NCBI GenBank assembly: GCA_949130485.1 | Contig: OX422185.1 | Coordinates: forward strand, 1,308,804 to 1,372,803 | From: Agelas oroides | Taxonomy: Eukaryota > Porifera > Demospongiae > Agelasida > Agelasidae | Direction of reading: 5' to 3' | DNA length: 64,000 nt | Shown: one piece after another, positions 1-37,899 of the stretch | Position numbering within the stretch: position 1 is the stretch's first letter | Layout of the letters: every line of letters starts with the position of its first letter | The notes under the pieces: model-generated | What the model was told of the DNA's origin: nothing | The model's database searches: none | Seen by the model: the letters and a program-made list of their open reading frames with translations, nothing else | Program-made: the position numbers and the translations under genes

Positions 1-448
1 TGCAATCTGTATAATATACAATTTGACACAATTTGTATACTGTATGTATACTTTGTCTATTCTTGTGTGTAAGCCTATGGATTTTAAATGTGTCTAATTA
101 GTATATTTTGTATATTTCTGTTTGTATTTTGTATATTTTAAATCAAACTTGTATATTTGTTGTTAATGTATGCTGTCAAAATTGTGTATAAATATATTTA
201 CTTTGTGTATAATTTGCAATCAAATTTGTATATTTCTGTGTTGAGGAAACCACCTTGTCAAAAGTGTATACTTTGTATATTTACATATGTGTACTGTATA
301 AATTTCAGTCACATTTGTATATTTTTGTATATTCTTCAGTAAATATGTAGCATATTTTTCAATTCAAACACATAATAACCGTAAATGTTCCGTATATCAT
401 GTTAAAATACACATGTAAATTATAATACATTTCAGTCACGTGGGATGC
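1..448. repeat. Left AT-rich subterminal repeat block
   Basis: This stretch has irregular repeats of TTTGTATATT, TATACTTTG and TGTATAATTTG and no credible coding sequence. A 61-codon open frame inside it is low-complexity and is not called. The motifs are those of the 156-bp array at 5180-6300 in reverse complement. The copies here are more diverged and are not regular tandem units. Confidence 0.6.
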
Positions 449-2355
449 TTACTTCAGGTGATTATGCTCTCGGAGTTGTTGTTCTATGTACATGTTGCGA
501 TTGTGGATAATTGTTTGTAAGAAAAAGTTGAATCTGTGTTCGTGCATCTGCTTCAATGATGACTTGAGTTTATTGAGCCATCTGAAGGCTTGTTCGGCGC
601 ACTCCGTATTAACACCATGTACTTCACTCAGATGAGGGAGCAAAGGGTGGTATCTGCATGCTGGATTATCCGGAGGCATACAACATGGCTCTGTGTGTTT
701 GCCAACGTGGAAGGCGTCTACAAAAAAAGAAACATTCCTGTTCAGCCACTTTGCGAATAACCCCCCCTTTGACTCCACATTACACAGAAACGGGTGGAGA
801 TCACATGCTCTGTCATAACCAAGATATCTCAGTCGCTTGATATCGTCACCATGAGCAAACGTTGTAACAAGAAACAGGTACACTTGTGTTGGTGACTCGC
901 ATGTGTACATTTCTGTCGTGTTGACAATGACTCCACATGGACGTACAAGTGCGAGTATTCCTGCTGTTCTGTCGTAGAACTTTGTGACACCTTTTTCTTT
1001 GCGACATCCTGTAAGAACACTGCTATCATCATTTTCAGGCACCTCTCCAACCTTATCTTTCAACAAAATTGGATTGGGGGTGTGCACATTAGGTGCCTGT
1101 GGCAATGCTGTTGACGAACATGATGTCCCCTGCGAGCTTGATGTGGCAGCGTTCTCAAGACCATCATGAAGTGCACAAAACTTGGATGCCTTCACATGCT
1201 TACCTCCTGTCAACGGGGAACGGCAGCATAGACTGGTCATGCAAATGTGCTGATTTGGCAACCGTACTTTGCTCCTTGGAGCTGCACAAACTGTGCGGTT
1301 CAGCTTCTCGTTTCCGTCAACCACAGCAAAACCCTCACTGCATCCATTCAAAGTACACTTGTGTGAAAACCATCTTGGTGATGTTAAAGACCTATGCAGG
1401 TTCACTTGCTTGCAAAGATCATCAATATCCATTCTCTTCCCTTTGTTGTCATCACATCCAAGGTCTTGTGTTTCAAGACAGCCAGCAGATTGGTGGTAAA
1501 GGATGACATTGTACAGGAACCAACCATCTTCAAGTCGCTTTTCATTCAGCTTCCAGCTCAAACTTGAAGCATTTCTCACTCGACTGAATGATGACTTCAA
1601 TGCACCAAGACAATCCTCATCGTGCATACCAAAGCATGAATTGTACACAAGCGCTTGGCTTTCAAAAGTAACACCTGCATGCACTATCTGTTGTGTTACT
1701 TGCTCAATAAGCTTCACTTCAAATACCGTTTGGCTACTTGTACTGATGTAAGGTGAATGTGATGGATCAAAGAAATGCTCCACCCTTTCTTCACCTTTCG
1801 GAGACCAGCTGCTGTGATGGATTACAGCTTTGCATTCACTGCACATTGCGCTGTATACAGCAGCAACAAGGGTTCCTTTAGTCGTGAAGACTAATGGAAA
1901 TGCTGGACGGTTTCTGCAACAAAAAAAAATACAAATATCATCTTTCTTCATTAATGCCTGCATGAACAACATCAATCACATAATACACAACCACTTCACA
2001 CATACCTAACAACCACCTTCTTGCCACAGCATTCCATTCGACCAGGAAGTAGCACTAAAGGCTTGAAACCACTGTTGCTGCCATCAGAAAGCAACGCATC
2101 ATCAAGTTTTCTTCTCTGCTCAAAGATTTCAGGATTACCCTGCTCAATAACGCTGTACATCTCTTTGCAGTGACCTTCACTCCCATCAAACTCACACACA
2201 CAATGTTTCCGGCCTTTGTAAATGAAAAATACCAAGCATTTCACACTACATCAATCAACCTCAATGGGAATTAAATAAATTACAACTAAACAACCAAACA
2301 TACGTCTTCCAATCACTCCACTTTCATCACAATACACTAGGATTAAGGGGTTCAT
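449..2355 (-). CDS. KDZ-type (Kyakuja/Dileera/Zisupton) transposase, three exons, intact
   Basis: The splice model is 2355-2304, 2213-2006 and 1913-449, with GT/AG introns of 90 and 92 bp whose phases (1 and 2) join cleanly. It gives 574 residues and a TAA stop with no internal stop. The start is an ATG at 2355. The N-terminal half is Cys/His-rich (CVCEF, MECCGKK and CSECK motifs, then a cluster with VDGNEKLNR), as in the cysteine clusters of KDZ proteins. The C-terminal third has the family's transposase pattern: GYDRACDLH (about residue 452), FFVDAFHVGKH (483) followed by Cys residues, and NTECAEQAF (522) followed by HNRN. Similar sequence also occurs in HMG-box proteins that carry a domesticated KDZ region. 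It presumably acts in the nucleus on the flanking repeats. The family call rests on motif recognition, not a search. Confidence 0.72.
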
Positions 2356-2404
2356 TATGGTTACTCCTGTCTTAACATTGGAAATGCTTTTTGGGTAGGC
2401 AACA

Positions 2405-2665
2405 TGTTACATGCTGGGTTACGGCTAGGGTTAGGTTAGGGCTGGGTTAGGGTTAGGTTAGGACTGGTTAGGGTTTAGTTAGGGTTAGGTTAGGGCTGGT
2501 TAGGATTTAGTTAGGTTAGGGCTGGTTAGGATTTAGTTAGGTTAGGGCTGGTTAGGATTTAGTTAGGTTAGGGCTGGTTAGGATTTAGTTAGGTTAGGGT
2601 TAGGTTAGGGCTGGTTAGGGTTTAGTTAGGGTTAGGTTAGGGGTAGGTTATGGCTGGGTTAGGGA
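2405..2665. repeat. Degenerate TTAGGG-like minisatellite
   Basis: About 260 bp of GGTTAGGGTTAGG and a longer unit, GGGCTGGTTAGGATTTAGTTA, repeated several times around 2480-2600. The core is the metazoan telomere hexamer, but the array is interrupted by CTGG and TTTA and is flanked by genes. It is therefore an interstitial minisatellite, not a chromosome end. It sits between the divergent transposase and ATPase genes. Confidence 0.8.
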
Positions 2666-3353
2666 ATGGCTTTTGTTAAACCATCAGCATACGCCTGGGT
2701 TAATTAAGCCTGCGTTTAGCAAATAGGGTACAAGTAGGTTCGGGCTGCATTACAAATTTAAAGTAAATTTAACATAAATATGGCTAAAAAAAAATAAACT
2801 TATTCAATATCATGCATATAAACACTTCAAATATTACAATTCACACATTGCATAACTTATCGCACCTTCACAATCTCCTGCAACCGTCAGCCCCACCTCC
2901 AACATCGCACTTTCGCCATCGTCAGCAAAGCTCAACAGCTGTGACACTAGCTGCCACCTCCGTGGAGTATTCGGTGGAAAACTGTTCACAGCATGCAGTA
3001 AAGCATGCACATGAGCAACCTTCACTCTCCACGTACTGCACAAAGCCATAACTTCTTTAAAAATGTTACGTAGCAACGTCGTCAGGTTAACCGGTTACCC
3101 GCTTATATTCATTCGCGCGCGCCGCGCTATACGTATCCTAGTTACAACCCGCGTACGCTTTAGTACGGCTAACCAAGTGGTTTCATGCACTGCTTCGACG
3201 CTGCATTGTTTGCCTGCTACACATAGTCTGCTATCCTTTTCACCGTCTACTACGACAGAGGACAACGCAACGTAACGGTAATTCATACTACATACTATAA
3301 ACATAAATGTACAAAATAACAAATTCATTAAGTACATACTTCTTCTAATACAG
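2666..3353. promoter_or_regulatory. Intergenic region between divergent transposase and ATPase genes
   Basis: There is no convincing coding sequence here. Both genes of the element point outward from 2356-3353, so their promoters must lie in it. Directly before the ATPase ATG is an acceptor-like TTCTAATACAG, and at 3280 there is a donor-like ACGGTAATT. An upstream non-coding or short coding exon is therefore possible. No TATA box or known operator could be assigned. Confidence 0.35.
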
Positions 3354-4880
3354 ATGTGTACACCGTTTCAAGCAAAACTCATAAAAGCACAAAGCAACTG
3401 TGTGGATTTCGCAACTGTGCTTTGTGAACCATTGCTTGCACTTTGTGTCGCTATGTCTGATGCAATCGGCTGTCCTCTTGAGTTCATTGTATTCCCTCTA
3501 CTCACAATTACTGCTGCTTGCATGGGAGTCAACGCTCATGTTGCCATCAACGAGATGTGGAAAGAACCAGCCATCGTTTGGTTCATTGTTGCCTCAAACA
3601 AAGGACAAAAGAAAACCGCAGCTCTTAGACTCTTGAAGAAACCCCTTGAAGAGATTGAGTGTGTGGAAGCAGAAAATTGGCGACTTCACCAACAACAACT
3701 TGCAACAACAAACACTGACAACCCACCTCAGCTATGCATTGACAACTTCAGCTTCGAGGAATTACATCATGTGATGAAGAGAAACGGGTCACAGATACTG
3801 GGATTGTTTGATGAAATGAGTACAATGTACTCTCAACTTGATCTCTACAAGCAGTCCGGTTCTGTAATGGATCGCAAGACACTCATTACACTTAATGGTG
3901 GAAGCTCCTGGTCAAGAAACTACCGAAATTACACAGCGTCAATGAAACAAACAGCATTCAACATGTCCGGCTTTATACAGCCATCCTTTGTAGAAAAGAT
4001 GCTTCTTTCGGATGATGCTGATGGTTTCAATGATAGACAGCTTTTTGTGTTCCCTCCACAAAGAGATGTACTCCTCAATGAACTCAAGCTGCCTATTCCC
4101 TCCAACATTCCATCATTGAAAGGCGTTTACAGATTGCTTCGCACCATTCATTCCTCACCACATACCTATGTGTTGGTTGGTGATGCACTGGACACATACA
4201 GGGATTATCATGACCAACTGGTCCGTCGTCAAAGTCGACAAGTGGATGGAAACATTCAAGGGATATTGTCAAAAGCTAGGGGCTACACAGCTCGATTGGC
4301 AATGATCCTATTTGCACTTGAGCAGACACTCACTCATATAATTGAGGGTGAATGTGATGTGTGCCCCAATACATCATGGAGCTTTGACGTAAGCACTAGT
4401 TGTTCCAGGGCAGCATGTACCATCATGGATTACCTCATTCAGCAAAAGTTGATCATCATGGATGTCACAGAGGTAGACGAACACAATACTGTTCACGCTG
4501 ATCAACTTGTGCAAATTCCAGATGCCAAACGCATACGTAGACTACTGCTACTACCACTTGAAGACAGCGATGGCCAGATCACTCCATCCAAGCTGGCTCA
4601 AAAACATATCTGTGCACCAACTGACGGTAAATACACGGTCGTGAAAGCACTTGAACTGTTCCGCTCAGCCTCTTCAATGGGATTCGGCGAGCAAGTTGAT
4701 CACGTTGTGCCAAGTACAAACCGTAAGGTTAGCCGATTCCGGAAGACACCTTACACTCTCCTCTCGTCAAACGCACGTAGCGCCTTGAGACAGCTTCGTA
4801 TCACAGAGGAGGAATACAATCAAACTTTTCCGACATCTTCTACCACACCTTCAACGCCATCTCCCGATCCAGAGTTCTAG
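3354..4880 (+). CDS. DUF3987-type P-loop ATPase (helicase/primase-like) of the element
   Basis: This is an open frame of 508 codons ending in TAG. A Walker A-like loop, SNKGQKKT (residues 81-88), follows a hydrophobic strand. A Walker B-like strand, ILGLFDEMS, has its acidic pair at 153-154, followed by a long helical region and a Ser/Pro-rich tail. This order fits the DUF3987 family, whose members occur in mobile elements, phages and host genomes and are thought to be degenerate helicase-like ATPases. The substrate is unknown. Because an acceptor-like TACAG abuts the ATG, the true start could be an upstream exon. It is transcribed away from the transposase gene and is followed by the 156-bp array. 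A role in excision, replication or target choice of the element is inference. Confidence 0.6.
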   Translation: MCTPFQAKLIKAQSNCVDFATVLCEPLLALCVAMSDAIGCPLEFIVFPLLTITAACMGVNAHVAINEMWKEPAIVWFIVASNKGQKKTAALRLLKKPLEEIECVEAENWRLHQQQLATTNTDNPPQLCIDNFSFEELHHVMKRNGSQILGLFDEMSTMYSQLDLYKQSGSVMDRKTLITLNGGSSWSRNYRNYTASMKQTAFNMSGFIQPSFVEKMLLSDDADGFNDRQLFVFPPQRDVLLNELKLPIPSNIPSLKGVYRLLRTIHSSPHTYVLVGDALDTYRDYHDQLVRRQSRQVDGNIQGILSKARGYTARLAMILFALEQTLTHIIEGECDVCPNTSWSFDVSTSCSRAACTIMDYLIQQKLIIMDVTEVDEHNTVHADQLVQIPDAKRIRRLLLLPLEDSDGQITPSKLAQKHICAPTDGKYTVVKALELFRSASSMGFGEQVDHVVPSTNRKVSRFRKTPYTLLSSNARSALRQLRITEEEYNQTFPTSSTTPSTPSPDPEF

Positions 4881-5179
4881 TATGTCACGTGTACGTTATC
4901 TTACTTCCGCAACTTCCGTGCACTCATTCCTCAGATCATAACTTCCTGTATTCATCATACTTCCTGTATTTATCATAACTTCCTGTATTCATCTTCAAAA
5001 TGTTACTACATGTACTAACACACCTCAAAGCCGTCTACCCATCCAGAGTTTTTAACATAACTTCCTGTATTCATCTTCATACACTACACTTTCCTCATAT
5101 CATGTTGTTTACATGTAGTAACTATAAGCATCCATATTCATGCCACAAACTAAAACCGTCCACACTAAGTCATAAATTA
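4881..5179. other. 3' flank of the ATPase gene
   Basis: The only feature is a short run of AACTTCCTGTATTCATC-like repeats between about 4920 and 5080. There is no coding signal. It leads into the 156-bp array. Confidence 0.5.
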
Positions 5180-6300
5180 CTGTATATTGTCAAACTGTAA
5201 TCAAATTAATGTATAATTTAAATAGAAAGATGTCTAATTATACAAAATATACAAAGTTGACTTTGTACACATCAAAAACACTACTAAAAACAACAAAGTA
5301 TAGTAATTTGACAAACCAAAATATATTCTCAAACTGTAATCAAATCACTGTATAATTTCAATATAAAACATGTCTAATTATGCAAAATATACAAAATCTA
5401 CAAAGTTGACTTTGTACACATCACCAACACTAGTAAAAACAACAAAGTATAGTAATTTGACAAAACAAAATATACGGTATATTGTCAAACTGTAATCAAA
5501 TTATTGTATAATTTTAATATAAAACATGTCTAATTATACAAAATATACAAAATATACAAAGTTGACTTTGTACACATCACAAACACTAGTAAAAACAACA
5601 AAGTATAGTAATTTGACAAAACAAAATATACTGTATATTGTCAAACTGTAATCAAATTATTGTATAATTTTAATATAAAACATGTCTAATTATAAAAAAT
5701 ATACAAAATATACAAAGTTGACTTTGTATACATCACAAACACTCGTAAAAACAACAAAGTATAGTAATTTGACAAACCAAAATATACTGTATATTGTCAA
5801 ACTGTAATCAAATTATTGTATAATTTTAATATAAAACATGTCTAATTATACAAAATATACAAAATATACAAAGTTGACTTTGTATACATCACACTCATAA
5901 AAACAACAAAGTATAGTAATTTGACAAACCAAAATATACTGTATATTGTCAAACTGTAATCAAATTATTGTATAATTTTAATATAAAACATGTCTAATTA
6001 TACAAAATATACAAAATATACAAAGTTGACTTTGTATACATCACAAACAATGCTGAAAACAACAAAGTATAGTAATTTGACAAACCAAAATATACTGTAT
6101 ATTGTCAAACTGTAATCAAATTATTGTATAATTTCAATATAAAACATGTCTAATTATGCAAAATATACAAAATATACAAATTTGACATTGTACACATCAC
6201 AAACAATGCTGAAAACAACAAAGAATAGTAATTTGACAAACCACAAAAGTAGACTGTATATTGTCAAATTGTTATATACTACAAACATACACACTAACTT
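5180..6300. repeat. 156-bp tandem array, about eight units (right subterminal block)
   Basis: The phrase CAAACTGTAATCAAAT recurs at about 5191, 5330, 5486, 5642, 5798, 5950 and 6106, with a worn copy at 6265. Most spacings are 156 bp, and they range from 139 to 159. Most units contain the perfect palindrome TACAAAGTTGACTTTGTA, preceded by two or three ATATACAAA steps and TGTCTAATTA. Inner units are almost identical; outer ones are diverged. A palindrome in each unit of a subterminal array is what a multimeric transposase binding region would look like, but this is inference. Confidence 0.85.
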
Positions 6301-6400
6301 TACAAAATATACTGGCAAAATTCTAATTATACATGATTATACAAATAAAACATGTGTAAAACATGTATAATTGCATTAAACGTACAATGCAATTTGACAT

Positions 6401-7044
6401 TGGTAAAGTCAAATTGATTTTAAGGGGTAAATTTAGCCAATTCTGCACCTTACTCAGCTTCTGGCTGCGGGCCTGTTTCTAGCTTTGGACGGCACCAGCA
6501 TGCGTACCGATCCCTCTAACGGTGGAAGAAAGTACCGTAAGTCAGTAAATAATGCCGTCTTCATCCATAATAAAAGCATATTCGTTGTTTCAGCAGCGGC
6601 TACGAGTGCATTCCAATTAAAGCACACGCCGCGGTTGCTACGCAGCGTATGCCCTGCGGGCTATCGAATACGGACCATCGAATATGGGAAAATATTAGTC
6701 ATGTTGCTCTATGGGAAATACTATTGGTGCGTATACTAGGTATATAATAATGTAGATTACATTACTTTAACACTATCAGGTGGTTTCAGATGCTACAGTG
6801 TCACGTTTCTAGTGAAGCTGTAGAGGATTTTAGAAACGAAACATCTTCAGCGAAGGAAAGACATTTGCTATAGGAATGTTGTGTCTCTTTCACACAGAGT
6901 ACTGAGTTGTTTGAGCACTAATTAAAGTACATCATTGTTGATGATATTGTGTGGCCTCATGGTCCGTGCAATATTGTCTGGTATTGCATGAGAAATACCA
7001 ACTGGATAATATATATTATGATATTTTGATACTTGTATATCAAA
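6401..7044. other. Non-coding stretch, nothing assigned
   Basis: Only short chance frames are present. A donor-like GTAAGTCAG follows an 18-codon open stretch at 6485, but there is no recognisable protein. Confidence 0.4.
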
Positions 7045-7720
7045 AGTCACAAAAAAGTTTGCCAAACGCAAACAAGCACATGTAGGGATGAAATCCTCAA
7101 AAACCAACCAAACAAGACGGGAACGACACCACAATACTTTTACACCATCCCTACATCTTATGCCATTTTGCCAAAACTGTGTGTTTGTATTTGTTTTTTA
7201 GTTGTGTGTAGAAGAGGGTTGTCTTGTAGATGGAAGGGTGTGGCGTGGGTGTGTTGTGCATAGTGAGTATGTTGTGTTGTTGGTGATTGCTACTGAGTGT
7301 AGCAGGTATGGTCCAAGTTGTGTGTAGAAGGTGTGGAGTGAGTGAGGAGTGGTGAGTGTGTGTGTTATGTTGGAATGTGCATTATGTTGTTAAGTTTTAT
7401 GCCTGTTTAGCATGATAGATATGGGTTGTCTTGTATACAGGTGGCTGTGAAGTGAGTAGTGGTAATTTTGTAATGCTTTGTGAAGGATGGGTTATTTTGT
7501 GAGATAGTTGAATGGAGTGAAGTACTATGTTTGTTTGTGGTTGGTGTAGGCTAATAAGTACAAATGTAGAGGGTTTTGTGTTGTGTACAGGTGGCAAAAT
7601 GGCACAAGATGTAGGGATGGTGTAAAAGTATTGTGGTGTCGTTCCCGTCTTGTTTGGTTGGTTTTTGAGGATTTCATCCCTACATGTGCTTGTTTGCGTT
7701 TGGCAAACTTTTTTGTGACT
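7045..7720. mobile_element. Foldback MITE with 128-bp near-identical arms
   Basis: 7045-7172 is repeated in reverse complement at 7593-7720. Each arm carries GTAGGGATG near one end and CATCCCTAC near the other, so each arm itself looks like a small TIR unit. The 420-bp spacer is GT-rich and non-coding. The same core motif occurs in the foldbacks at 11114 and 59839, which suggests a related family. Confidence 0.85.
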
Positions 7721-8394
7721 TGTTTCTGTTGTTTTTTTTTTGTTTACTTGTTATGTAGTTTATTGTTGATGTTGATGGGTTTCTGGAGGATGTTAGCTGT
7801 TTGCACTTATCCACTTGACAATGGAATCATGGGTGTAACTGTTGTCTAATTGGGTATGTGCATGTGTGTGTGTGAGTGGTTGTTCTAAGGCACTGTGGTA
7901 TATACATGACTGTCTACCTGTTCTGTTGTATGACAGGGTTGTAACACTGTATGTTGTGTGTTGTCCAAGGAACAGTTTCTATAGCTGGTTATACATTGTG
8001 GGCAGGTGTGTGTAGGTTGTGTATGGTGGGTGGCAGGTACATAGGTCATAAAGAGGTAAGGCATAACTGTGGTAAAGGAACCCTTGGAGAGTAAGAGTGT
8101 TTTTCCGGGTTCTTCCAGTACTTGTTACGGGACGCTTGCCTTTTGCTTTCTTTGTTTCGCAGATAGTTCTGCTTATCCCGCGCCCGTTTCTTGTGGACGT
8201 TACGCATACTGCGTTCCTTGTCAAATCCAGCACAAGTACGTCAACTGCTGTATGAAAGTAGCAACATATGCAATCGTTTGGGAATCAATCGATCGTCAAG
8301 TTCTCTACGGAAGTAGAATAACCGCAGCTGCATGCCAACTTCACGTGCTGTAGCTGTTGAACTTCTGTTGACGTAATCGCTATGAATATTCTAT
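7721..8394. other. Non-coding stretch, nothing assigned
   Basis: GT-rich sequence to about 8050, then a 94-codon open frame at 8069-8353 with no recognisable domain. It may be chance or part of an old repeat, so it is not called as a gene. Confidence 0.4.
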
Positions 8395-8856: not shown

Positions 8857-8975
8857 GATATTTGCAGTCTTATCAATACAATATTGAATATTGTGGGACT
8901 GAAATATTGTCATTGTCCCTGCTCTATACACTGCAAAAAATAAAGGGTTACTTTAACCCAGCTAGGGTTATCTCA

Positions 8976-9477
8976 GTTGCAGCTTCACTACCAAAAAATG
9001 TGCATACAAGCAGATCAATTAGTAATACTTCCCTTACGTAGTTGCAGCTTCACTGCCAAGCAATGTGCATACAAGCAGATCAATTAGTAATACTTTCCTT
9101 ACGTAGTTGCAGCTTCACTACCAAAAAATGTGCATACAAGCAGATCAATTAGTAATACTTTCCTTACGTAGTTGCAGCTTCACTACCAAAAAATGTGCAT
9201 ACAAGCAGATCAATTAGTAATACTTCCCTTACGTAGTTGTGGCTTCACTGCCAAGCAATGTGCATACAAGCAGATCAATTAGTAATACTTTCCTTACGTA
9301 GTTGCAGCTTCACTGCCAAGCAATGTGCATACAAGCAGATCAATTAGTAATACTTTCCTTACGTAGTTGCAGCTTCACTGCCAAACAATGTGCATACAAG
9401 CAGATCAATTAGTAATACTTTCCTTACGTAGTTGTGGCTTCACTGCCAAGCAATGTGCATACAAGCAGATCAATTAC
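8976..9477. repeat. 65-bp tandem array, seven full units plus a partial
   Basis: Units start with GTTGCAGCTTCACT or GTTGTGGCTTCACT at 8976, 9041, 9106, 9171, 9236, 9301, 9366 and 9431. The spacing is exactly 65 bp. Variation is limited to a few sites, such as CCAAAAAATG versus CCAAGCAATG. It is non-coding. Just upstream, CACTGCAAAAAA at 8930 resembles the terminus of the MITE at 41197. Confidence 0.9.
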
Positions 9478-12745: not shown

Positions 12746-14268
12746 ATATATATACATACATACAAACGCGAGCTGACTACACTGCACGATTAGCAGCCTC
12801 GCGCTAAGGCGCTTGGCAATAACGCACGCGTGTGTCAACTCATAGATTAATAACCCGTACCGGGATTGGAAACGGAATCACGTGAGCGCATCAGCGCCAT
12901 ACGTTTTGGCGGCACCCATCCGTGCAACGCTATGTGATGGCGACTGGTGCCGAACGGTTGATGCAAATGGTGCAAGTAGCAGCTCGGAAGCGAAAATTTG
13001 GAATTATTTGTGGATTTTTAGGCACTGTCAGAGACTGGGTAAGTTGTATTTTCCACTAAAATACTAATATAAACCATATGCGTAAAGAATACACGTACTT
13101 TCTGTTCACATAGCAACAAGTCTAGATGTTTGTGGGGGAGTTTCTTTCCAGTCCGCTACATGTAGGCATTGAAATTTGCATCATTACCTTGCACTAGTGA
13201 TGAAGTGTTGCATGGTGTGGGTAAAAATTAGTTGTTGCCGGCTTGTGGTATGAGCAGCAAGATAAAATATATGGTAGTTTTGGAAGCTATTAATATGGCA
13301 TTTTTGTGGGGGAGTTACATTGTACACACATACCACTGAGAATAGGAGTGGTAATGTTAGGCTTGGTTAGTGGTTGAAGCTTTGCATGCCATAATTGAAA
13401 CTCTGTTTCTGGTACCATGAGCTTTGTGTTGGCAGATTATGTATAGTACACGTTTAGTGAATCTCGAGTTGCATTCAGATGATATCAAGGCAAAATAAAG
13501 TAAGATACTGCTTATACAATGACATCTTTAGAGTGTGGGAACTGCGTGGAGACAGGTTGCAGGATACCGTAATGGAGGGAAGAAAGTTTAAGAATTCCTT
13601 TGGTTCTGTGAGTATTCTACTCATTTCATATCCAACAAAAACACCAGTGTTATCATCAGCCATGAGTGTAGCTCACTTGAGCATATAACTATAGACACTT
13701 CCTGTAGGAAGCAAGCAATGCCTACCCTTACATGCATGGGGGTTATTACTAAGTTTCAGAGGAATGTGTTGACAGTGATGTGCACACTGACAACAGACAT
13801 TTGTCACATGTAAACATTTCTACATGTATAATCAGCTGATTGTGAACAACTTGTACGTAATGTATAGATAAACAGTGGTGTAGTATCTATGGCATAAATG
13901 TGTAGCAGTACAGTGCAGTAGCATCTAATTATCGGCAAACGACAGCAGGGCAAGGTCCGCCTCATTATACTGCGCAAACGGAAGTACATTGAACGCGGAG
14001 AAAGCGTTGCACGGATGGTGGAACGTAAATATTGCGTTTCCAATCCCCGTACGGGTTATTGGGGCGAGCCTGAGCGAGCCCCACATTGGTGAGTCGTATT
14101 GAGATTTTCTCTGCATATATATATGGACGTACGTACGTCTTTCCGTAAATTCTAATTCCACTCTAATTTAACGTGATTTATTTAAAGTATTGCACCATAG
14201 ACAATGATTGCACCTATAGTTGAACTTATTTGTACGCCTTCCAAGTGGATGTTTGGTTGTTCGCGAGT
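12746..14268. other. Helitron 5' flank with an inverted-repeat pair
   Basis: 12746-12825 matches the end of the repeat at 61850-61947. AATAACCCGTAC, GGGATTGGAAACG and CCATCCGTGCAACGCT at 12846-12935 recur in reverse complement at 13960-14062. The pair could bound a non-autonomous element or be Helitron flank. No gene was recognised between them. Confidence 0.5.
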
Positions 14269-17200
14269 ATGGATACTAACCCAGAATCAGTAGAGAAGAG
14301 AGAGAAAAGGTTGCGGAGTCGGAGAGAACGAGAGAGGGCCCGCCGTGCTTCCGAGACAGCGGAGCAAAGGGAAGAAAGGTTGAGAAAACGGAGAATGAGG
14401 GACAGGGCTAGGCGGGCTTCACAAGCTACCGAAGATAGGGAGGCACGACTGCAGCAAAGAAGGTACAGACTGGATGCTGAGACTGCCGAGGAGAGAGAGG
14501 CCAGGCTGCAGCTGAGAAGGGACAGGCTGGCAGCTGAGGCTCCCGAGGAAAGAGAGGCCAGGCTGCAGCATATGAGTACTTACCAGCATGAGAGATTGGC
14601 AGCTGAGACTTCCGAGGAAAGAGAGGCCAGGCTGCAGCATATGAGTACTTACCAGCATGAGAGATTGGCAGCTGAGACTCTCGAGGAAAGAGAGGCCAGG
14701 CTGCAGCATATGAGTACTTACCAGCATGAGAGATTGGCAGCTGAGACTGCCGAGGAGAGAGAGGTCAGGTTACAGTGTGACAGACAGAGACACAGAGATC
14801 AACAGCTTGTGCAGTCACAGCTCCCACTGTTTGAACAGCATTCCATTCGAGCTAAGATGCATAAGTTTCATGCACACTTCACTACGCTAGATCTGTCAAC
14901 ATGTACCACCTGTTTGGAGAGTTTTCCTGGTCTTCAGCTTCACTTGGGGTCTGCTGAGTGTCTGCGCTGTAGCCGGGACAAGCATATACCGAAGTTATAC
15001 TCCTCTGCCAACAACATGGATCCTGGCCCTATACCATCTGAACTGCAGGTTGGTAATAATATTACTGTTATGTTATCCTATGTAACTGATGTGTTCCTTC
15101 TTACCATCTGAACTGCAGGTTGGTAATAATATTACTGTTATGTCATCCTATGTAACTGATATGTGTTCCTTCTTACAGGGATTAACACAAGTGGAAGAAA
15201 TGTTGATTTCTGGTGTGCTACCAATCATGTCACTGTACCGACTACCTCATGGGCAGTACGCATACAGTGGACATGTCATCAACCTGCCACAAGACGTGGC
15301 CTCCTTCGTCAATTCTCTGCCACGATTGCCCACTGAACTTGACATCATTGTTGTGAGGAAGCAAGGAGCTGCTGACTCCCATCATGACTTTCGTGTCAGG
15401 AGGTCTGTAGTGCTTGCTGCACTTCAGTGGTTACTCGCCAACAACCAGTATTATCGCAGTGTTCAGATCAATAGTGATGCCCTTGCTCTACTACCAGAGG
15501 ATGGAAATTTGACTGGCCTGAGGTCTGTGACACTTGACTCTGTTGCTGATGACAGTGAAACACCATCTGTCGAAGATGTGGACCCCTATGATGCCCATCT
15601 CTCAGGATCGTTTGTGCCCAACACTACTCAGCAGTTGACTGAAGAGGAGACAGTCAGACAGTCTGTGCAAGAGCGACAATCTCACCAGCAGCCAGTGTCT
15701 CCTCCCACAGTGTCATGGCCTCCCAGTGGCTTAACACCCATCAATGAATTCAGCACTGAGGGCTACATCTCATGTGCCTTCCCCACATTGTTTCCAACTG
15801 GTGCTGCTGACTTTGTGGCTCCACGCCCACTCGCTGTCACTGTAGGGAACTACTTCAAGCACCTGCTGGTATACCAAGACGGCCGATTTGCCAGACACCC
15901 TCGATTTCGATACTTTGCACTCAACACGGAGATGCGTTGGTGAGCACTGCAGGCAGGACGGATCTACATTCGTCAACACCCTCTTGATGCCCAGCTGTCA
16001 GTTGAGGAGCTCCGAGACATGGTCGGTCGTGAAGGAGAGGCTTTCTCCAACCGAGTGCTGCACTATGCCTCCAGCCTACGTGGAACGAGGCAGTACTGGT
16101 TCAAGCAGCGGAGCCGGCTCATTGCCATGGTGGATACACTCGGTCTGCCCACAGTGTTTTTCACCCACAGCGCAGCTGACCTCCAGTGGCCAGAGCTTGC
16201 ACGACTCATCTGTCCTGACAACCCCGATTCCAGCTCCAGCCGCAGCAAGGCCCTCCAGGAGAACCCTGCCATTGCTGACTGGTTCTTCCACCATCGCATC
16301 CAGAAGTTCATCAATGCTTTCTACGTTGGTGTTCTTGGTGCCACTGACTTCTGGCTTCGCTTTGAGTGGCAGCATCGTGGCAGCCCTCATGTCCACGGCC
16401 TTGCCTGGCTTCCTGATGCTCCAAACGTGGAGCAGGTCCTGGCCTCCTCTGCTACTGGCACTGATGCAGCAAAGGAAGCCCTCATCCAGCATGTGGACAG
16501 GATTGTGAGCACCACCAACCCAGCTGTTCTTCCTGATGGCAGCAATCTAGATGATGCTCCGTCACCCAAGACCAATCCTCACATCTGCAACCTGCCCTAT
16601 GCTGAGGTTGAGGACTTCAACCAGGACCTGGCTGACCTCATCGCCACATGCTAGCGACACACCCGCTGCTCAGCAGCCTACTGCCTACGCACTTCCAATG
16701 GCCAGCAAAAGTGTCGATTCGGCTACCCAAAGCCTCTACAGCCTGAGACAGCCCTCATCACTGAGGATGGAGAACCAGTGTTGCTGACTGCACGTAATGA
16801 TGCTCTCATCAACAGCTTCAACCCTGTGCAGTTGTCAGCATGGCGCGCCAATGTCGATATGCAGTACTGCGTGTCTCGGCACAAGGTCATTGAGTACTGT
16901 GCAAAGTATGCCACCAAGAGTGAGCCCCGCTCTCAGCCACTGAAGGAGATCTTCACTACCATCGTGAGGAGCCTGAAAGATGATAGCACCTCCCTGAAGG
17001 CTGTACAGAAACTCCTCATAAACAGCGTTGGAGAGAGGGATTACTCAGCACAGGAAACCTGCCACATCCTTCTACAGCTGCCCATGTTCAGGGCTTCCCG
17101 GGACTTTGTCGTGCTCAGCCTTGACGGGTCTCGTGCAGTGGAAGAGCATTTGACAGAAGACCAGCCAGCAACAGCACTGTCAGCACTAGACCACTACACC

Positions 17201-19611
17201 ACTCGACCTTCAACTCCAGAGTTTCAGGATATGACACTGCTGCACTTTGTGCAGCACTTCACCATGCCCAGGGAGCCTGGCTCAGATCTCTCCCACAGGA
17301 GGAAGAAGGTTGTTGTCATCGTGCGACCATACTGCTCCCCTGACCCTTAGGGTCCCAAATACGAACAATACTGCCAACATAAGCTCATGCTTCATGTACC
17401 ATTCCGGCATCAGGATGAACTCCTGGGTGACAATGACACATTCATTGCCGCATATGCCACCTTTCTTCAATCTGGCAACATTCCTCCATCACTTGAGGAG
17501 GACATTCATCAACTTGAGCAGCTTTCTGAAGGACCTTCAGAGGACGACAGATCTGAGGTTTGCTTGATGCACACAAACATTTTTTCCCCCTTTCCATTAT
17601 AGGAGTGTAATAATAGTATGATCTTTTCCCTGTCTCAGGAACAGACGGATCAGCAGCAGAGACAGGCCCCATCCAGAGCTATGGAGGAATGGATGCTCAT
17701 CTGCCAGCGTAATGCTGACCTGCAGCCTAATATAGATTCTCAAGAGGAATTTGACTGGACACAGGGAGCACAAGCATATCCCAACCTGGAGGAGATGCCG
17801 ACCTTCATCACACGGCAGCGCGAGTCAGCAGCTGAGCACACATTCACCACCTTTGCTGACCCCCAGCACCTGCAGGGGAAGCAGCTGCAAGTCTACACTC
17901 TTGTGCAGGAGCATGCTAAAGCTGAGGGTCCACCCCCTCTCAGGATGATAGTGTCTGGAACAGCTGGGACTGGAAAGTCCTACTTGATTCACTGCCTGAG
18001 ACTTCTCCTTGGCAATCGAGTGCGTGTTGCAGCACCCACAGGTGTGGCAGCCTTCAACATTGAAGGACACACCCTCCACTCCCTCCTCAGCTTGCCCGTC
18101 AAGGGTGACTACAAGGACCTGGAAGGAGAGCGCCTGCACCAGCTGCAGCAGTCCCTTGCAGGTGTGGATTATCTCATCATAGATGAGATGTCTATGGTAG
18201 GCAGAAGATCTTTGGACAAGTCGACAAGCGCCTTCGCCAGGGGTTTCCCCATCGTGCTGACACACTGTTCGGAGGCTGTTCCTGCTTGCTCTTTGGGGAC
18301 TTTGGTCAGCTCCCTCCCGTGATGGATCTCCCCCTCTATTCCACAGTGTCTCGCTCTGCCTTGTCTGATCTTGGCAGCACTGCCTATCAGCTTTTTGACC
18401 ATGCTGTCGTCCTGAAACAGGTGATGCGTCAGTCAGGGCAAACTCCAGCTCAAGTTCTGTTTCGTCAAATTCTCCTTCGTCTCCGTGATGCTCGTCTCAC
18501 ATATGACGATTAGCAATAACTGATGAAGCAAACACCAGCTCAACTTCTCAACCTAGCCCCCTTCACTACTGCCCTTCACCTTCACCCAACGATTGAGGCT
18601 GTCGTGGAGCATAATGTCAGTAGGCTGCATGCCAGTGGCCAGCCTATTGCCACCATCAAAGCCATCCACACAGGCCCTAATGCCAGCAAAGCCTCATCTG
18701 AGGATGCAGGTGGTCTGGAGCCAATCATCTGTTTGGCATGTGGAGCTCATGTGATGCTCACTGCCAACCTCTGGGTGGACATGGGACTGGTCAATGGTGC
18801 CATGGGAACAGTGGTTGCCATTTGCTACAGCAACGGTGGAACTCCACCTCATCTCCCAGTTGCAGTTATGGTGCGGTTTGATTCCTACCAGGGTCCCACT
18901 CTCCCTGATAGCACTGTCCCTATCACCCCACTCCGCCGCACTTGGTCTGTATCAGGTGCTTCATGCTCCCGCCTACAGCTCCCTTTCAAGCTAGCCTGGG
19001 CTGTCACTATCCACAAGGCTCAGGGCCTCACATTGGATAAGGTGGTTATCAATGTTGGAAAGAAAGAGTTCTCAACAGGACTAACATTCGTTGCCTGTTC
19101 TCGAGTGCGTCACATGGAGGACCTTCTGTTTGATCCTCCATTTCCTTTCCAACGTGTGGCAAATCTCTCAAAGAGTCAGCGTTTGCAGGAAAGGCTCCTT
19201 GAAGATGCAAGACTCCTTCTCCTTGAAAGAAACACACTACCCATGCAATCTCCAACCCCCATCCTTCCCACCATAGACTCTCCCACCCCCAGTCCTCCCA
19301 TCATGGATTCTCCTCTCATGGATTATCCCATCATGAATTCTCCCACCCCCAGCCCTCCCATCATGTATCCTCCCACCTCCAGCCCTTCCCTCATGGACTC
19401 TCCCACCCCCAGCCCCCCTGCAGAGTACCACACCAGTCCAAGCCACTGGTCCATGGACTCTCCGACTCCAAGCCCGCCTGCAGAGTACCACACCAGTCCA
19501 AGCCACTGGTCCATGGACTCTCCAACCCCCAGCCCCCCTGCAGAGAACCACACCAGTCTAAATCACCAGTCTATGGACTCTCAGACTCCCAGAGACACTG
19601 CAGAGTGGTAG
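14269..19611 (+). pseudogene. Helitron Rep-helicase gene, two introns, inactivated
   Basis: The start ATG is at 14269. An Arg/Glu-rich N-terminal part has three 72-bp repeats (about 14550-14770) and then a CxxC-type zinc cluster. The Helitron_like_N region follows, then the Rep HUH motif RGSPHVHGL (about 16375-16400) and the tyrosine motif EYCAKYATK (about 16890). The PIF1-type helicase has GTAGTGKS, IIDEMSMVG, GDFGQLPP and IHKAQGLTL, and a Pro/Ser-rich tail with about 20-residue repeats. Introns 15049-15178 and 17558-17638 join in phase 0. It is broken by in-frame stops at 15941, 16652, 17348, 18511 and 18517 and by a one-base frameshift near 18205. The homologous reading continues after every lesion. 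Helitrons move by rolling-circle transposition. Ends (5' TC, 3' hairpin and CTRR) were not located. Confidence 0.9.
15031..15178 (+). repeat. Tandem duplication across a Helitron exon/intron boundary
   Basis: ACCATCTGAACTGCAG and the following intron sequence (GTTGGTAATAATATTACTG...) occur twice in tandem with a unit of about 70 bp. The end of exon 1 and the splice donor are therefore duplicated, and the second copy runs into the real acceptor TTCTTACAG at 15178. Splicing from the first donor removes the extra copy and restores the order SELQ-GLTQVEEM. Confidence 0.8.
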
Positions 19612-30558: not shown

Positions 30559-31925
30559 TTTTTTTTTTTTTTTTTCTATAAAAGTTTATGCCAAATAGCA
30601 AGGGATACATAAAATAGCAGAGCTAATGTGTAATATGCATCCATACATGTGATCTAAAATGTGGTACGTAACTATTAGACACAAGTGAGACTGGAAGTGT
30701 GTTCCATGTAGAAACTGTACGAGGGACAAACGAGTTATAGAAGTAGTTAGTGCGGGCAAAAGGTCTATAAAACAAAAAGGGTCTGTTAGTACTTTGAGTT
30801 CTACCTGAGTAGGTATTAAAAATGCCAGAGGGAAAATTAAATAGTCCGTGCACGATTTTGAACATGGTGCAGAGGTCAAGGTAGAGTCTGCGTTCAGACA
30901 GTTCAGCGATGTTAAATGACTGGAGAAATTGGGAATAGGCCTGGTCCCAGCGTTTGGAGCACATTCTGAGGGCAAATTTCTGGACATTCTCTAGCGTGTT
31001 GATATTTTTCTGCAAGTAGGGGTTCCATACTGGGCTGGCATACTCTAAGTGGGGGCGTACCAGGGATACATACAGTTGGAGTAGGATCTGCGGCTCTGCA
31101 TATTGGTAGTATTTTCTGTACAGTAGTCCCAGCAGTTTCCTCGCCTTACTGCATATGGAATCAACATGGGTGGACCAGGAAAGATCTGATGTTAAGAGTA
31201 AACCCAGATATTTAAAGCATTCAACACGCTCGAGATGGTGGCCCTGTAGTGTAAGATATGCAGGTGAGATGCCTGCTCTTTTCCGAGAGACAACCATATA
31301 TCTACATTTTGAAATGTTAAACTGCAGGTAGTTTGCTTCAATCCATGAGTCCAGCTTGTTGATATCCTCTTGCAGCGCAGAAGTCTCCCTGGCATGTGAT
31401 TGGTCTGTACAGCAGTATATCATCAGCATATGCAGTTAGTTGGCTTTCCTCTGAGAGAGGAACACTCATCACCCCATCTATGTAGATGAGGAATAGCAGG
31501 GGCCCGATCACAGAGCCTTGAGGCACACCTGACAATACTGGAAGAGTTTCAGATGTCTGGCCATTGACAACCACTCTCTGCTTTCTCTGTGTTAAGTAAT
31601 CACAGATCCACTTCAAGATAAACTCATTCAGTTGTAGATCCCTCAGTTTGTCCAGCAGGGCGTAGTGCGGTACAGAGTCAAAAGCCTTTTGTAGGTCGAA
31701 AAAAACTGCTCCAACTTCCTTTCCAGTGTCCATAAACTGGAACCAGTTGTGAGTGGTTTCCAGCAGGGCAGTGACCGTTGACCTTCCTGACTGAAAACCC
31801 CATTGAGAGGTGGATAGAGGATGGTGAATTTCAAGATGGCTAGTGATTTGGCTATACATATGTCGTTCCAAGAGTTTGCTTAGCACAGATAGGAGAGAAA
31901 TTGGCCTGTAGCAAGTTTGTGCTGT
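30559..31925 (-). mobile_element. 5'-truncated LINE (Jockey/CR1-like reverse transcriptase) in intron 3
   Basis: In the minus direction the RT runs from YRPISLLSVLSKLLERH through QWGFQSGRST, FFDLQKAFDSVPH, LSGVPQGSVIGPLLF and YADDILLY, then thumb and C-terminal parts to HITH at 30623. A one-base frameshift lies near 31400. The 3' end is TTTGGCATAAACTTTTATAG plus a poly(A) tail, seen as T-run 30559-30575. It begins abruptly near 31925, so it is a 5'-truncated dead copy. It lies antisense to the CARD/kinase gene, between exons 3 and 4. Confidence 0.9.
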
Positions 31926-34900
31926 GCAAGTTTGTGTTGTGCTTCTCGACTCATCCTGCCTAACGCACGCAGTCACCCCGAGTTGGACCATCTGGACCAC
32001 TGACCATGCCCACTTCCGTAGCCTTAATGAGTATTTAGTTGTATCTAGCTGCCTTTATCCTAAGTTTGAAGTTAACAATTTCAGTTGTTGCTACAAGCAA
32101 GCTTGCAAGTTGTTGATGACTGAATAGACTAGGATGACATGTATATACATGTACACATGTATGTGTGTGTACCTATGTGTGCGTGTGGAGTGAGTGTGTG
32201 TGTGTTGGTAATAGGAAAATTGGAATGGAAGAGCGAAAAAGTTAAATAGGAGCAGAATATCATAGTGTATGTGTGTTGGGGGGGGGGATGTAGTAAAGGA
32301 GACAGATTGCTTTCATTCTTATTCTAACAGGTGAACTCAGGACTGCTCTGAAGCGTTACACAGTGAAGGCCAAGCCTACAGGAATAGAGTTAGGCAGTGC
32401 AACATTTGGCAGAGTCATAGAACTACTGTCAGCTGGTGAGATTGTTGCTGGAAAAGTGTTTAGAACATCATCGACCATACACCATGAAGTAATGAACAGG
32501 CTATACGCAGAACTGACTCTGATGACTCAAGTTCACCATCCAAACATTGTCCAGTTTAAAGGAGTGTGTTTTCTGGAGAACGAAACCATGCCAGTGCTTC
32601 TAATTGAACGAATGGGTAACAGTCTCCATGCCTATACCTTCTTAAACCCGCCAATTTGAATACAGCACTAGTGAGAAAACTCTCTATTTTGGGTGATGTT
32701 GCTAGTGGGCTGCTCTACCTTCACAGCCATACACCTGCAATAATCCTTAGAGACTTAACAGCGAAAAAAGTGCTACTGGACTCAAAACTGAGAGCAAAGA
32801 TAGCAGATTTTGGGAACGCACGAATTGTGGACCTAGACCCCGAGGCCTCCCCACAAACATTCACTCCATTACCAGGCATTCTAGACTGCGTGCCTCCCGA
32901 GGCCCAAGGTGATAGTGCACAGTGTGCCCCCAGCCTTGATGTCTTCTCCTTTGGACATTTGTCACTCTTCACCATCATCCAGACTCCTGTGCATCCAATC
33001 CTCCCTCCAACCTACATTGATGATGGATTGATTCATGCTCGTTCAGAGATTAAAAGACGTGAGTACTACCTGAACAAAGCTGAACAGCTTTTGGGAAAGG
33101 AACATTCACTACTTGTGTTGGTCAAGCAATGTCTCCACAACAGCCCAACACAGCGCCCTCCAACTGCAGAGCTGGTGACGAGACTACAAGACATTCTAGG
33201 TATATTGGGAGGAGCTAATGGCAAAATGTCTCTCTGTTTTTCTCTCTCTGTCTATCTCTGTGTGTTTAGTCTCTGCAGCACCCAGTTGTTGTATGTTAGA
33301 TGTCCCTTTCTCCCCAACTTATGACCTCTGAACTAGTTAATTTAGTGTCACAGATCACACTTCAACTCATGTTTGAATGACACAAAAGTACACAGTACTG
33401 AGTGGAAGAATGGGAAAAAAGCAGATAAAAACAAGACCCACTAAGTGTGCACAGAATGTTGTGGTAGAACCCTCTAATTAAGAACTTAGATCGTTCATTT
33501 CCCAAATTCTGCTATTAGTGTTTCATTTATTCTCTGTGACACACAAACACCCACATACACATACATAGTGAGACAAAGCTACATGTATGAAAAGGAATTG
33601 CGCTATGGCCATATCGACACCTACATAGCTAAGGTGCTGTTGTTTGGCATTGCAGGAAGTGGAAAGACATCAGTGACTGCAATCATGTTGGGAGATCCTC
33701 CACCTCCAGTTCGTGAGAGTACTTCACTGATGGCCCGTCCAGTCCAAGTTATTACAGTCTTGTTGGATGAAATGACGAAATGGAAGAAGAAAACACCAGA
33801 AGAAGTCAGGAGAAGAATTGCAGAAATTATCCGATCACGAAAACTGCAAAAAACAGATTTGGAATCAACACATTCAGAATCAACAGCTTCAACAGTTTCA
33901 AAGGCTTCAACAGATCAGCAGATTCCTAACCACAAGATTAAGAATCAACAGCTTCAGAATCAGCAAATTCAGACTGACAAGAAACAGTTGACCAGAGAGT
34001 CCTCCCAACAAGTCAAAGAACAGACTCTACCCTCTGCACTAGCGCAACCACTCCAGCCAGAATTTTATTCTCTCCTGGATGAGGCTAAAAAGGAAGATGA
34101 CTTTCTGTCACTAGTCGATGACTGTGATCCATCCTCTGAGCCCATTCTCAAGCAGAGGTGGTTGTACATTATAGACTCTGGTGGGCAGCCAGAGTTTCAC
34201 AACATGTTATCAATCTTTGTGCAAAACACAACTGCTTGTATCTTTGTCTTCAGGATGCATGAGGAACTGGGTGAGTGTCCACCTCTTGCGTACTACAAAG
34301 GTGGAAGTTCTCTTGGCCCAATGCAACACTCAAGAATGACTAACAGACAAATCTTTGAGCAATTCATGCGCACCATGCGATCCTTCAGCTCCATGAAAAA
34401 TGGAGTCCCTCCAAGAATCTTACTTTTAGCTACCCATCGAGACCTGGTGGGGAAGGATGCCCTGCCCAAACTGCTAGAGGAGAGGCAAAAACAACTGAAG
34501 GCAATCATCCTGCCTCAGTTCCGGGACCAGCTGATCTACTGTGATGAGCAGTTAGAGGAGTTTATCTTCACTATGAATGCCAAGGAACCAGAAGGTAAGG
34601 ACACAGCTACAGCCAACACCATTCGAAAGAGGATCACGGAAGTGTGTTCCGGGGAAAGAGAAAAAGTGAAGATCCTTTTGAGGTGGCACACCCTGGACCA
34701 TCGTTCAAGAAAGATCTCAGATAGTCTGAAACGCAAAGTGCTGAGCAGAGAGGAATATGGGGAGATTGCAAAGTCACTGAATATCGATCACAAGTCATGT
34801 GAAGGAGCCCTAAACTTCTTCAGTGGACTGAACACAATATTTTACTTCCCAAATGTTCTCCCCCACCTGGCGTTCCTGGACACCCAGATCCTCCTAGATA

Positions 34901-36514: not shown

Positions 36515-36595
36515 TGGGTACAAGGCTAAGACCTTGTGAATACTAGTCAGATGTTCTTACCACTGAGCTGCTGGACTCATGGTGGAGTAGTAGAA
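36515..36595 (-). repeat. tRNA-derived SINE fragment
   Basis: The minus strand reads CAGCTCAGTGGTAAGAACAT followed by CTGACTAGTATTCACAAGG. This is a tRNA-like 5' half with an A box and an anticodon-arm-like segment. The B box is missing; the sequence runs into the CTTGTACCCAGGCT hairpin motif instead. It sits in an intron of the CARD/kinase gene. Confidence 0.45.

Positions 36596-37799: not shown

Positions 37800-37899
<100 letters not shown>

What the first reader, a model, noticed from the sequence alone, without database searches (positions are those of the whole stretch)
1..6400. KDZ transposase paired with a DUF3987-type ATPase in one element
Two open, divergent genes sit between AT-rich blocks related in inverted orientation. 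One is a three-exon KDZ-type transposase, the other a DUF3987-type ATPase with Walker A and B motifs. I know of KDZ elements with accessory genes, but not of a DUF3987 ATPase as a standing partner. An ATPase beside a transposase recalls Tn7-like or Mu-like target or assembly ATPases, or a helper for replication. Both genes are intact, so the element may be recent.
Basis: partly seen in the sequence, partly recalled or inferred. Interest (0 to 1): 0.78.

Follow-up and report, generated by a model that had tools for sequence, protein, structure and literature searches.

The report
Transposon pairing transposase with plasmid-type ATPase
A jumping gene in what is probably a sponge genome carries, besides its KDZ transposase, a second gene for an ATPase of a kind known from bacterial plasmid replication, and related elements elsewhere in the same genome keep the two genes side by side even where their proteins are only about a quarter identical.

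Summary
The window starts inside a 6,561-bp DNA transposon (window -105 to 6455). It has TIRs 5'-CATTAAGGTGCAGWATTGGCTAA, an 8-bp target duplication (AGCTTCTG), AT-rich subterminal blocks in inverted orientation, a three-exon KDZ transposase (minus strand, 618 aa) and, head to head with it, an open DUF3987 ATPase gene. In this 259-Mb genome a copy 97-99% identical over its main aligned parts has its own 8-bp duplication (GAGGGAGT) but an internal deletion. Of 36 DUF3987 loci, 20 lie within 10 kb of a KDZ match (0.22 expected), 19 of the 20 divergent. A second lineage, 22-29% identical over its main stretches, keeps the same arrangement. The ATPase is thus a standing partner in one KDZ group, not a single-copy host gene; it is not universal, since 57 of 77 KDZ loci have no detected DUF3987. 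The ATPase is homologous to replication ATPases of bacterial plasmids; no TnsC/MuB/IstB-type match was found. A helicase-like helper is my best mechanism, and that part is inferred. No paper in the searched library pairs KDZ with DUF3987. Other animals could not be searched. Verdict: new variant of a known kind.

The parts
1..6455 (.). KDZ/DUF3987 two-gene transposon; whole element is C3:1308698-1315258 (6,561 bp), the first 106 bp lie before the window
   Evidence: end points from alignment with the C1 copy, TIRs and 8-bp TSD; length
6433..6455 (-). right terminal inverted repeat, read on minus strand GAGTAAGGTGCAGAATTGGCTAA; left partner CATTAAGGTGCAGTATTGGCTAA at C3:1308698
   Evidence: genome-wide pattern 46 hits (up to one mismatch) against 0 for the reversed control
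6456..6463 (+). right copy of the 8-bp target site duplication AGCTTCTG; left copy directly before the element, outside the window
1..360 (.). left AT-rich subterminal block
   Evidence: inverted similarity to the right array
5239..6272 (.). right AT-rich subterminal tandem array, 156-bp unit, 6.7 copies
2866..3049 (-). KDZ transposase exon 1
   Evidence: in-frame splice model; exon found again in the C12 and C2:8.53 copies
2006..2213 (-). KDZ transposase exon 2
449..1913 (-). KDZ transposase exon 3 with CxC5 and KDZ domains, including stop codon
   Evidence: acidic motifs recur across lineages
2416..2664 (.). degenerate GGGTTAGGTTA minisatellite in KDZ intron 1, length differs in the C1 copy
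3354..4880 (+). DUF3987 ATPase gene, single exon, about 508 aa
   Evidence: PF13148; P-loop K, Walker B DE and a downstream Arg invariant with the bacterial relatives aligned
3050..3353 (.). intergenic stretch between the two divergent start codons, presumed shared promoter
   Evidence: read from the sequence; promoter function inferred

Best explanation
A two-gene KDZ-superfamily DNA transposon. Shown: the ends, the 8-bp target duplications, the two open divergent genes, further copies, and long-term retention of the pair. Inferred: both proteins are made from one bidirectional promoter region; the KDZ protein (DDE-type, zinc-cluster N-terminus) binds the TIRs and subterminal repeats and does strand cleavage and joining; the DUF3987 protein acts as an ATP-driven, helicase-like DNA remodeller on the element's own DNA (opening AT-rich subterminal DNA, or helping to copy or finish the transposition product), a role taken over from a plasmid-type replication ATPase that has lost its primase partner. 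Estimated confidence: anatomy and mobility about 0.95; ATPase as a functional transposition partner about 0.75; helicase-like action rather than target choice about 0.5. The score below is for the whole statement.
For: Domains. Ends and 8-bp TSDs of C3 and C1 copies and of three gene-less elements with the same TIR. Pairing 20 of 36 DUF3987 loci, 19 divergent, 0.22 expected. Second deep lineage with the same arrangement. KDZ/DUF3987 identities to the window proteins fall together: 96-98/100% C1, 91-93/93% C13, 35-60/55% C4, 41/31-57% C2:13.07, 27-52/36% C14, and 22/24% over the main stretches of C5:5.49. Acidic KDZ motifs and ATPase Walker B kept in both lineages. C3 against C4: synonymous sites saturated, dN 0.35 (DUF) and 0.43 (KDZ part). 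DUF3987 relatives lie on plasmids, mostly cyanobacterial; of three such proteins scanned one is fused to Prim-Pol, one lies beside a Prim-Pol/PriCT-2 gene, one showed no primase domain. Of three Phycisphaerae relatives scanned, two showed Toprim or CHC2-zinc matches, weak and below cut-off. The PHROG match is a DNA helicase (E 6.3e-12). In PICMI satellites, where the primase is recognised by DUF3987 plus DUF5906, deleting its gene lowers element copies (PMC10803314, passages).
Against: No biochemical or structural support for helicase action: the AlphaFold model had mean pLDDT 52.6 with the ATPase core unresolved and no PDB match at E up to 0.001; sequence and profile searches of the PDB gave nothing better than E 0.29. 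57 of 77 KDZ loci have no detected DUF3987, so KDZ transposition does not in general need it. 16 of 36 DUF3987 loci have no KDZ within 10 kb, including the large ones C8:479987 and C17:4625028. Between C3 and the very close C1 copy the few changes show no clear constraint (dN/dS 0.58 on 3 changes in the ATPase, 1.25 on 11 in KDZ), and one ATPase segment against C2:8.53 gives 0.83. The P-loop is atypical (SNKGQKKT).
Confidence: 0.55

Rival explanations
1. The ATPase is a target-selection or assembly regulator that works like TnsC, MuB or IstB: it binds target DNA with ATP and recruits or activates the KDZ transposase.
For: A DDE-type transposase beside an ATPase in a conserved pair. A winged-helix-like order of elements at about residues 393-467 of the model (six of the eight ten-residue blocks 391-470 at pLDDT 71-79, two at 46 and 56) would suit DNA binding; this is my reading, and its fold matches were not significant.
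Against: Homology is to DUF3987 replication proteins, and no TnsC/MuB/IstB-type match was found; target duplication 8 bp rather than the 5 bp of Tn7 and Mu (recalled); the five target duplications read here share no obvious sequence.
Confidence: 0.25
2. The ATPase is cargo or an accessory (silencing escape, copy control, host effect) and takes no part in the transposition reaction.
For: KDZ elements of fungi and giant transposons of a brown alga are known to carry extra genes (PMC12730594 and PMC12477816, passages), and 57 of 77 KDZ loci here have no detected DUF3987.
Against: One fixed head-to-head arrangement across lineages 22-29% identical, correlated divergence of the two proteins, and conserved ATPase residues are more than passing cargo would show.
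Confidence: 0.17
3. The neighbourhood is accidental: a DUF3987 repeat family and a KDZ family that landed together, amplified by segmental duplication.
For: Some paired loci on C2 (12.86 and 13.08 Mb) are near-identical inverted duplicates and not independent.
Against: 20 pairs seen against 0.22 expected; pairs on nine contigs (C1, C2, C3, C4, C5, C12, C13, C14, C23); shared ends and different target duplications in two separate insertions.
Confidence: 0.02

Closest known systems
KDZ superfamily (Kyakuja-Dileera-Zisupton), including fungal TET/JBP-carrying Kyakuja and Cryptococcus KDZ1
   Same: KDZ domain with CxC zinc cluster, multi-exon transposase, TIRs, 8-bp TSD (8 bp for Zisupton in PMC12730594 and for KDZ1 in PMC12810828, passages), accessory genes in some
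   Different: shorter transposase (618 aa against up to 1,400 aa in PMC9297572, passage) and a DUF3987 ATPase partner, for which the searched library gave no report
DUF3987 replication ATPases of bacterial plasmids, phages and satellites (Prim-Pol/DUF3987, PICMI prim)
   Same: PF13148 domain with the same P-loop K, DE and Arg positions; one cyanobacterial plasmid copy (L002) has a similar odd P-loop, SGQKKS
   Different: no primase domain recognised in the transposon; partner is a KDZ transposase
Tn7 TnsB/TnsC, Mu A/B, IS21 IstA/IstB (recalled)
   Same: a DDE transposase paired with an ATPase gene
   Different: no detected homology of the ATPase; eukaryotic; divergent genes; 8-bp TSD
Helitrons and Academ elements (recalled), eukaryotic transposons with helicase-like proteins
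   Same: helicase-type ATPase encoded by the element
   Different: unrelated transposases and, by recall, unrelated helicase families

Membership tests
KDZ superfamily | PF18758 domain above the curated cut-off | tested here: met
   35.5 bits against 26.6
KDZ superfamily | CxC zinc cluster upstream | tested here: met
   PF18718 29 bits against 26.9
KDZ superfamily | acidic catalytic residues kept across copies | tested here: met
   by patterns written after seeing the sequences, in the stretches held: DGN[EM]K at 13 places including the second family, YD..C at 10, ECAEQ at 7; C4, C14 and C5:5.49 have ECAEQ, ESCEQ and EVCEQ, and C5:5.49 has YDDGC. That these are the DDE triad is recalled and inferred
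KDZ superfamily | TIRs and 7-8 bp target duplication | tested here: met
   8 bp in 5 of 6 elements with both ends read: C3, C1, L080, L082, L083; not L081
Zisupton, Kyakuja or Dileera sub-clade | position in a KDZ tree | not tested
   no reference sequences of the named clades were fetched
DUF3987 (PF13148) ATPases | PF13148 above cut-off with P-loop K and Walker B DE | tested here: met
plasmid DUF3987 replication systems | primase domain or primase gene alongside | tested here: not met
   only DUF3987 matched in the protein above cut-off; no third gene recognised among the frames of the element, which were not all scanned by profile
Tn7/Mu/IS21-type systems | TnsC/MuB/IstB-family ATPase | tested here: not met
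   no such Pfam or NCBIfam match at E up to 1
Tn7/Mu/IS21-type systems | ATPase controls target choice or transposase activity | not testable with these tools
   needs an assay
single-copy host gene | one locus outside elements | tested here: not met
   59 matches, 36 loci after merging three searches

The most novel reading that the evidence does not exclude
A clade of eukaryotic transposons that has merged a DDE-type KDZ transposase with a plasmid-type replication helicase, so that the element is copied (for example as an excised circle whose AT-rich terminal arrays act like plasmid iterons) rather than simply cut and pasted.
Probability: 0.2. Interest if true: 0.88.

Novelty: new variant of a known kind. 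Interest (0 to 1): 0.6.

Why it matters
ATPase partners of transposases are well studied in bacteria (Tn7, Mu, IS21) but, by recall, hardly known for eukaryotic DDE transposons. A pair kept across deep divergence gives a direct test case for what an ATPase adds to a eukaryotic transposase, and shows a bacterial replication ATPase family in long service inside the transposons of what is probably an animal. It would also help annotators, who may otherwise list these DUF3987 proteins as host genes.

Tried and rejected
Single-sequence AlphaFold of the ATPase failed (mean pLDDT 34); with six sequences the mean was 52.6 and only flanking helical parts and a C-terminal stretch became fairly confident, so the fold matches are not used as evidence. 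Seven IMG/VR scans with either window protein, with DUF3987 alignments or with bacterial DUF3987 proteins found no relative. tblastn of the ATPase against phages gave no match. PDB sequence searches gave three, none and two matches, all at E 0.29 or worse. My first exon join was one base off and gave stops; it was corrected. Accidental neighbourhood, single-copy host gene and Tn7-family membership were considered and rejected for the reasons given. The extra 5 kb between the genes of the C4 copy held repeats and low-complexity frames; I recognised no third gene there by reading the frames, and no profile scan was run on them. One genome was searched; the tool states that it has no relatives held.
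Full report
Check of the observation. Pfam finds KDZ (PF18758) and CxC5 (PF18718) on the minus strand and DUF3987 (PF13148) on the plus strand, all above curated cut-offs. The KDZ gene reads as three exons joined at GT/AG sites, 618 aa without internal stops. The ATPase frame is open from 3282 to 4880, first ATG at 3354. The start codons are 305 bp apart and the genes diverge. The right AT-rich block is a 156-bp tandem array; the left block is related to it in inverted orientation, score 58 against a shuffle mean of 31.8, although at least one of 200 shuffles scored higher.

Ends and mobility. The tool placed the window at C3:1308804 of a 259-Mb, 141-contig genome. A copy on C1 is 97.3% and 98.7% identical over its two longest aligned pieces, the alignment starting 106 bp before the window start. 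Both insertions begin CATTAAGGTGCAG and end CTGCACCTTACTC, and are flanked by 8-bp duplications, AGCTTCTG on C3 and GAGGGAGT on C1. A 176-bp query from the right end of the window's copy matches to its last base in C3, C1 and C1:21536621; five other places stop at base 170. The C1 copy lacks the part corresponding to window 2715-3648, so KDZ exon 1 and about 100 ATPase residues are missing there. The TIR pattern with up to one mismatch occurs 46 times, its reversed control 0 times. Four shorter two-ended elements were read: three (L080, L082, L083) have 8-bp duplications and no match to either protein at E up to 0.01; the fourth (L081) shows no duplication and one 27-residue ATPase match at E 0.008. 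L080 keeps the subterminal array at 94% identity; L082 and L083 share little or nothing beyond the end sequence.

Pairing. Searches of the genome gave 59 ATPase matches, 33 PF13148 matches, 70 KDZ exon-3 matches, 34 PF18758 matches, and 22 and 22 matches for the second-family queries. These counts are lower bounds by the tool's own statement. Merged within 6 kb they make 36 DUF3987 loci, with contig C96 left out as a likely contaminant, and 77 KDZ loci. 20 of 36 DUF3987 loci have a KDZ match within 10 kb; 0.22 would be expected under uniform placement; 19 of 20 are divergent, one fragment pair on C23 is tandem. One of the 77 KDZ points (C2:24745542) came only from a targeted look at a DUF3987 neighbourhood; without it 19 of 36 are paired. 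On C2 alone 9 of 19 are paired against 0.29 expected. Among DUF3987 loci with about 300 or more summed residues, 11 of 13 are paired; C8:479987 and C17:4625028 are not (the C17 sum counts overlapping frames twice). Of the 16 unpaired DUF3987 loci 12 are matches of under 150 residues. Not all pairs are independent: the two C2 loci at 12.86 and 13.08 Mb are 99.6% identical over 4.4 kb and inverted. From the KDZ side 57 of 77 loci have no DUF3987 detected; many of these match only the C-terminal part or the PF18758 profile and seem to belong to other KDZ groups, others are fragments. One second-family KDZ exon with an open frame, C3:10011709, has none in 2.9 kb upstream.

Depth of the association. 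Within the window's lineage KDZ and ATPase identities to the window proteins fall together across C1, C13, C4, C2:13.07 and C14. At C5:5.49 Mb and C4:3.20 Mb the proteins are only 22-23% (KDZ) and 24-29% (DUF3987) identical to the window's over the main stretches, with two short KDZ matches of 28-29 residues at 50-55%, yet a KDZ gene and a DUF3987 gene again stand head to head. For C5:5.49 Pfam gives DUF3987 at 9.5e-12, above cut-off, and CxC5 at 3.6e-5, just below it (24.3 bits against 26.9). Related pairs were found at further loci on C2 and C23. This second family has a P-loop of the usual kind (for example SMPTGSGKST), the first the variant SNKGQKKT; both keep DE at Walker B. The acidic KDZ motifs are kept too: DGNEK or DGNMK, YDRAC or YDDGC, and ECAEQ, ESCEQ or EVCEQ. 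A 633-aa open KDZ frame at C2:13075026, without introns, fits the exon-joined length.

Selection. Nei-Gojobori counts: C3-C13 dN/dS 0.30 (ATPase) and 0.21 (KDZ part); C3-C2:8.53 0.08 and 0.83 for two ATPase segments; C3-C1 0.58 (ATPase, 3 changes) and 1.25 (KDZ, 11 changes); C3-C4 synonymous sites saturated with dN 0.35 and 0.43. I read this as long-term constraint on both genes with decay of individual copies, as usual for transposons; the closest comparison is too short to judge.

What the ATPase is. Outside the genome 16 plasmid records match the ATPase, 13 of them cyanobacterial (Nostoc, Scytonema, Chroococcidiopsis, Gloeocapsa, Gloeothece, Crinalium, Allocoleopsis), the others Salinibacter, Sulfitobacter and Alicyclobacillus; best E 1e-12, 20.8-26% identity. 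Of three DUF3987 proteins scanned from them, one is fused to Prim-Pol, one lies beside a Prim-Pol/PriCT-2 gene and one showed no primase domain. In prokaryote genomes five Phycisphaerae or Planctomycetia MAG loci match; of three scanned, two showed Toprim or CHC2 zinc matches, weak and below cut-off. Alignments keep the P-loop lysine, DE and a downstream arginine invariant. The literature seen calls these domains putative helicases fused to primases (PMC5862659, passages), and in PICMI satellites deletion of the primase gene lowered element copies (PMC10803314, passages). I therefore favour helicase-like work on the element's DNA over a TnsC/MuB-like role, but no test here separates them.

Host. 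A nuclear receptor ligand-binding family, animal-specific by recall, matches at two neighbouring places on C23 (three matches, one weak); the 14 control genomes gave none, but what they are was not shown and they may all be prokaryotes. Two such genes fits sponges by recall; the species was not identified.

Known or not. Searches of the paper library for KDZ with DUF3987 found 0 papers; DUF3987 10 papers and PF13148 1 paper, none in the listings about eukaryotic transposons; none of the 12 papers holds both a KDZ term and DUF3987. Iyer et al. 2014, the founding KDZ survey, is not held, so a mention there cannot be excluded. KDZ elements with other accessory genes are known (PMC12730594, PMC12477816, passages). 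Hence: new variant of a known kind.

Noticed in passing
window 7044-7721: Foldback: 130-bp arms 99% complementary around a 418-bp spacer, just outside the transposon.
   Followed up: no
window 14224-19611: Helitron-like element in pieces: STPR repeats, Helitron_like_N and PIF1 helicase domains.
   Followed up: no
window 41618-42238 and 30623-32054: Reverse transcriptase fragments; the first matches RVT_1, the second was only read from its frames.
   Followed up: no
window 32620-39432: Host-like gene pieces: a protein kinase domain, a 502-aa frame without Pfam match at E up to 0.01, and a death domain.
   Followed up: no
window 8975-9476: 65-bp tandem repeat, 7.7 copies, 95% matches.
   Followed up: no
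L066 (G000:C96:11000-19000): Small 19-kb contig, GC 55%, with a DUF3987 frame of 525 aa directly followed by a Toprim-type frame (Toprim below cut-off): perhaps symbiont or phage DNA in the assembly.
   Followed up: partly
G000:C2 about 12.86-13.13 Mb: Five paired KDZ/DUF3987 loci, four of them in mirrored order; the 12.86 and 13.08 Mb ones are 99.6% identical over 4.4 kb, suggesting a large inverted duplication.
   Followed up: partly
L082 and L083: Gene-less elements with nearly the same TIR and 8-bp TSD but interiors unlike the window's element, so more than one non-autonomous family may use this transposase.
   Followed up: partly
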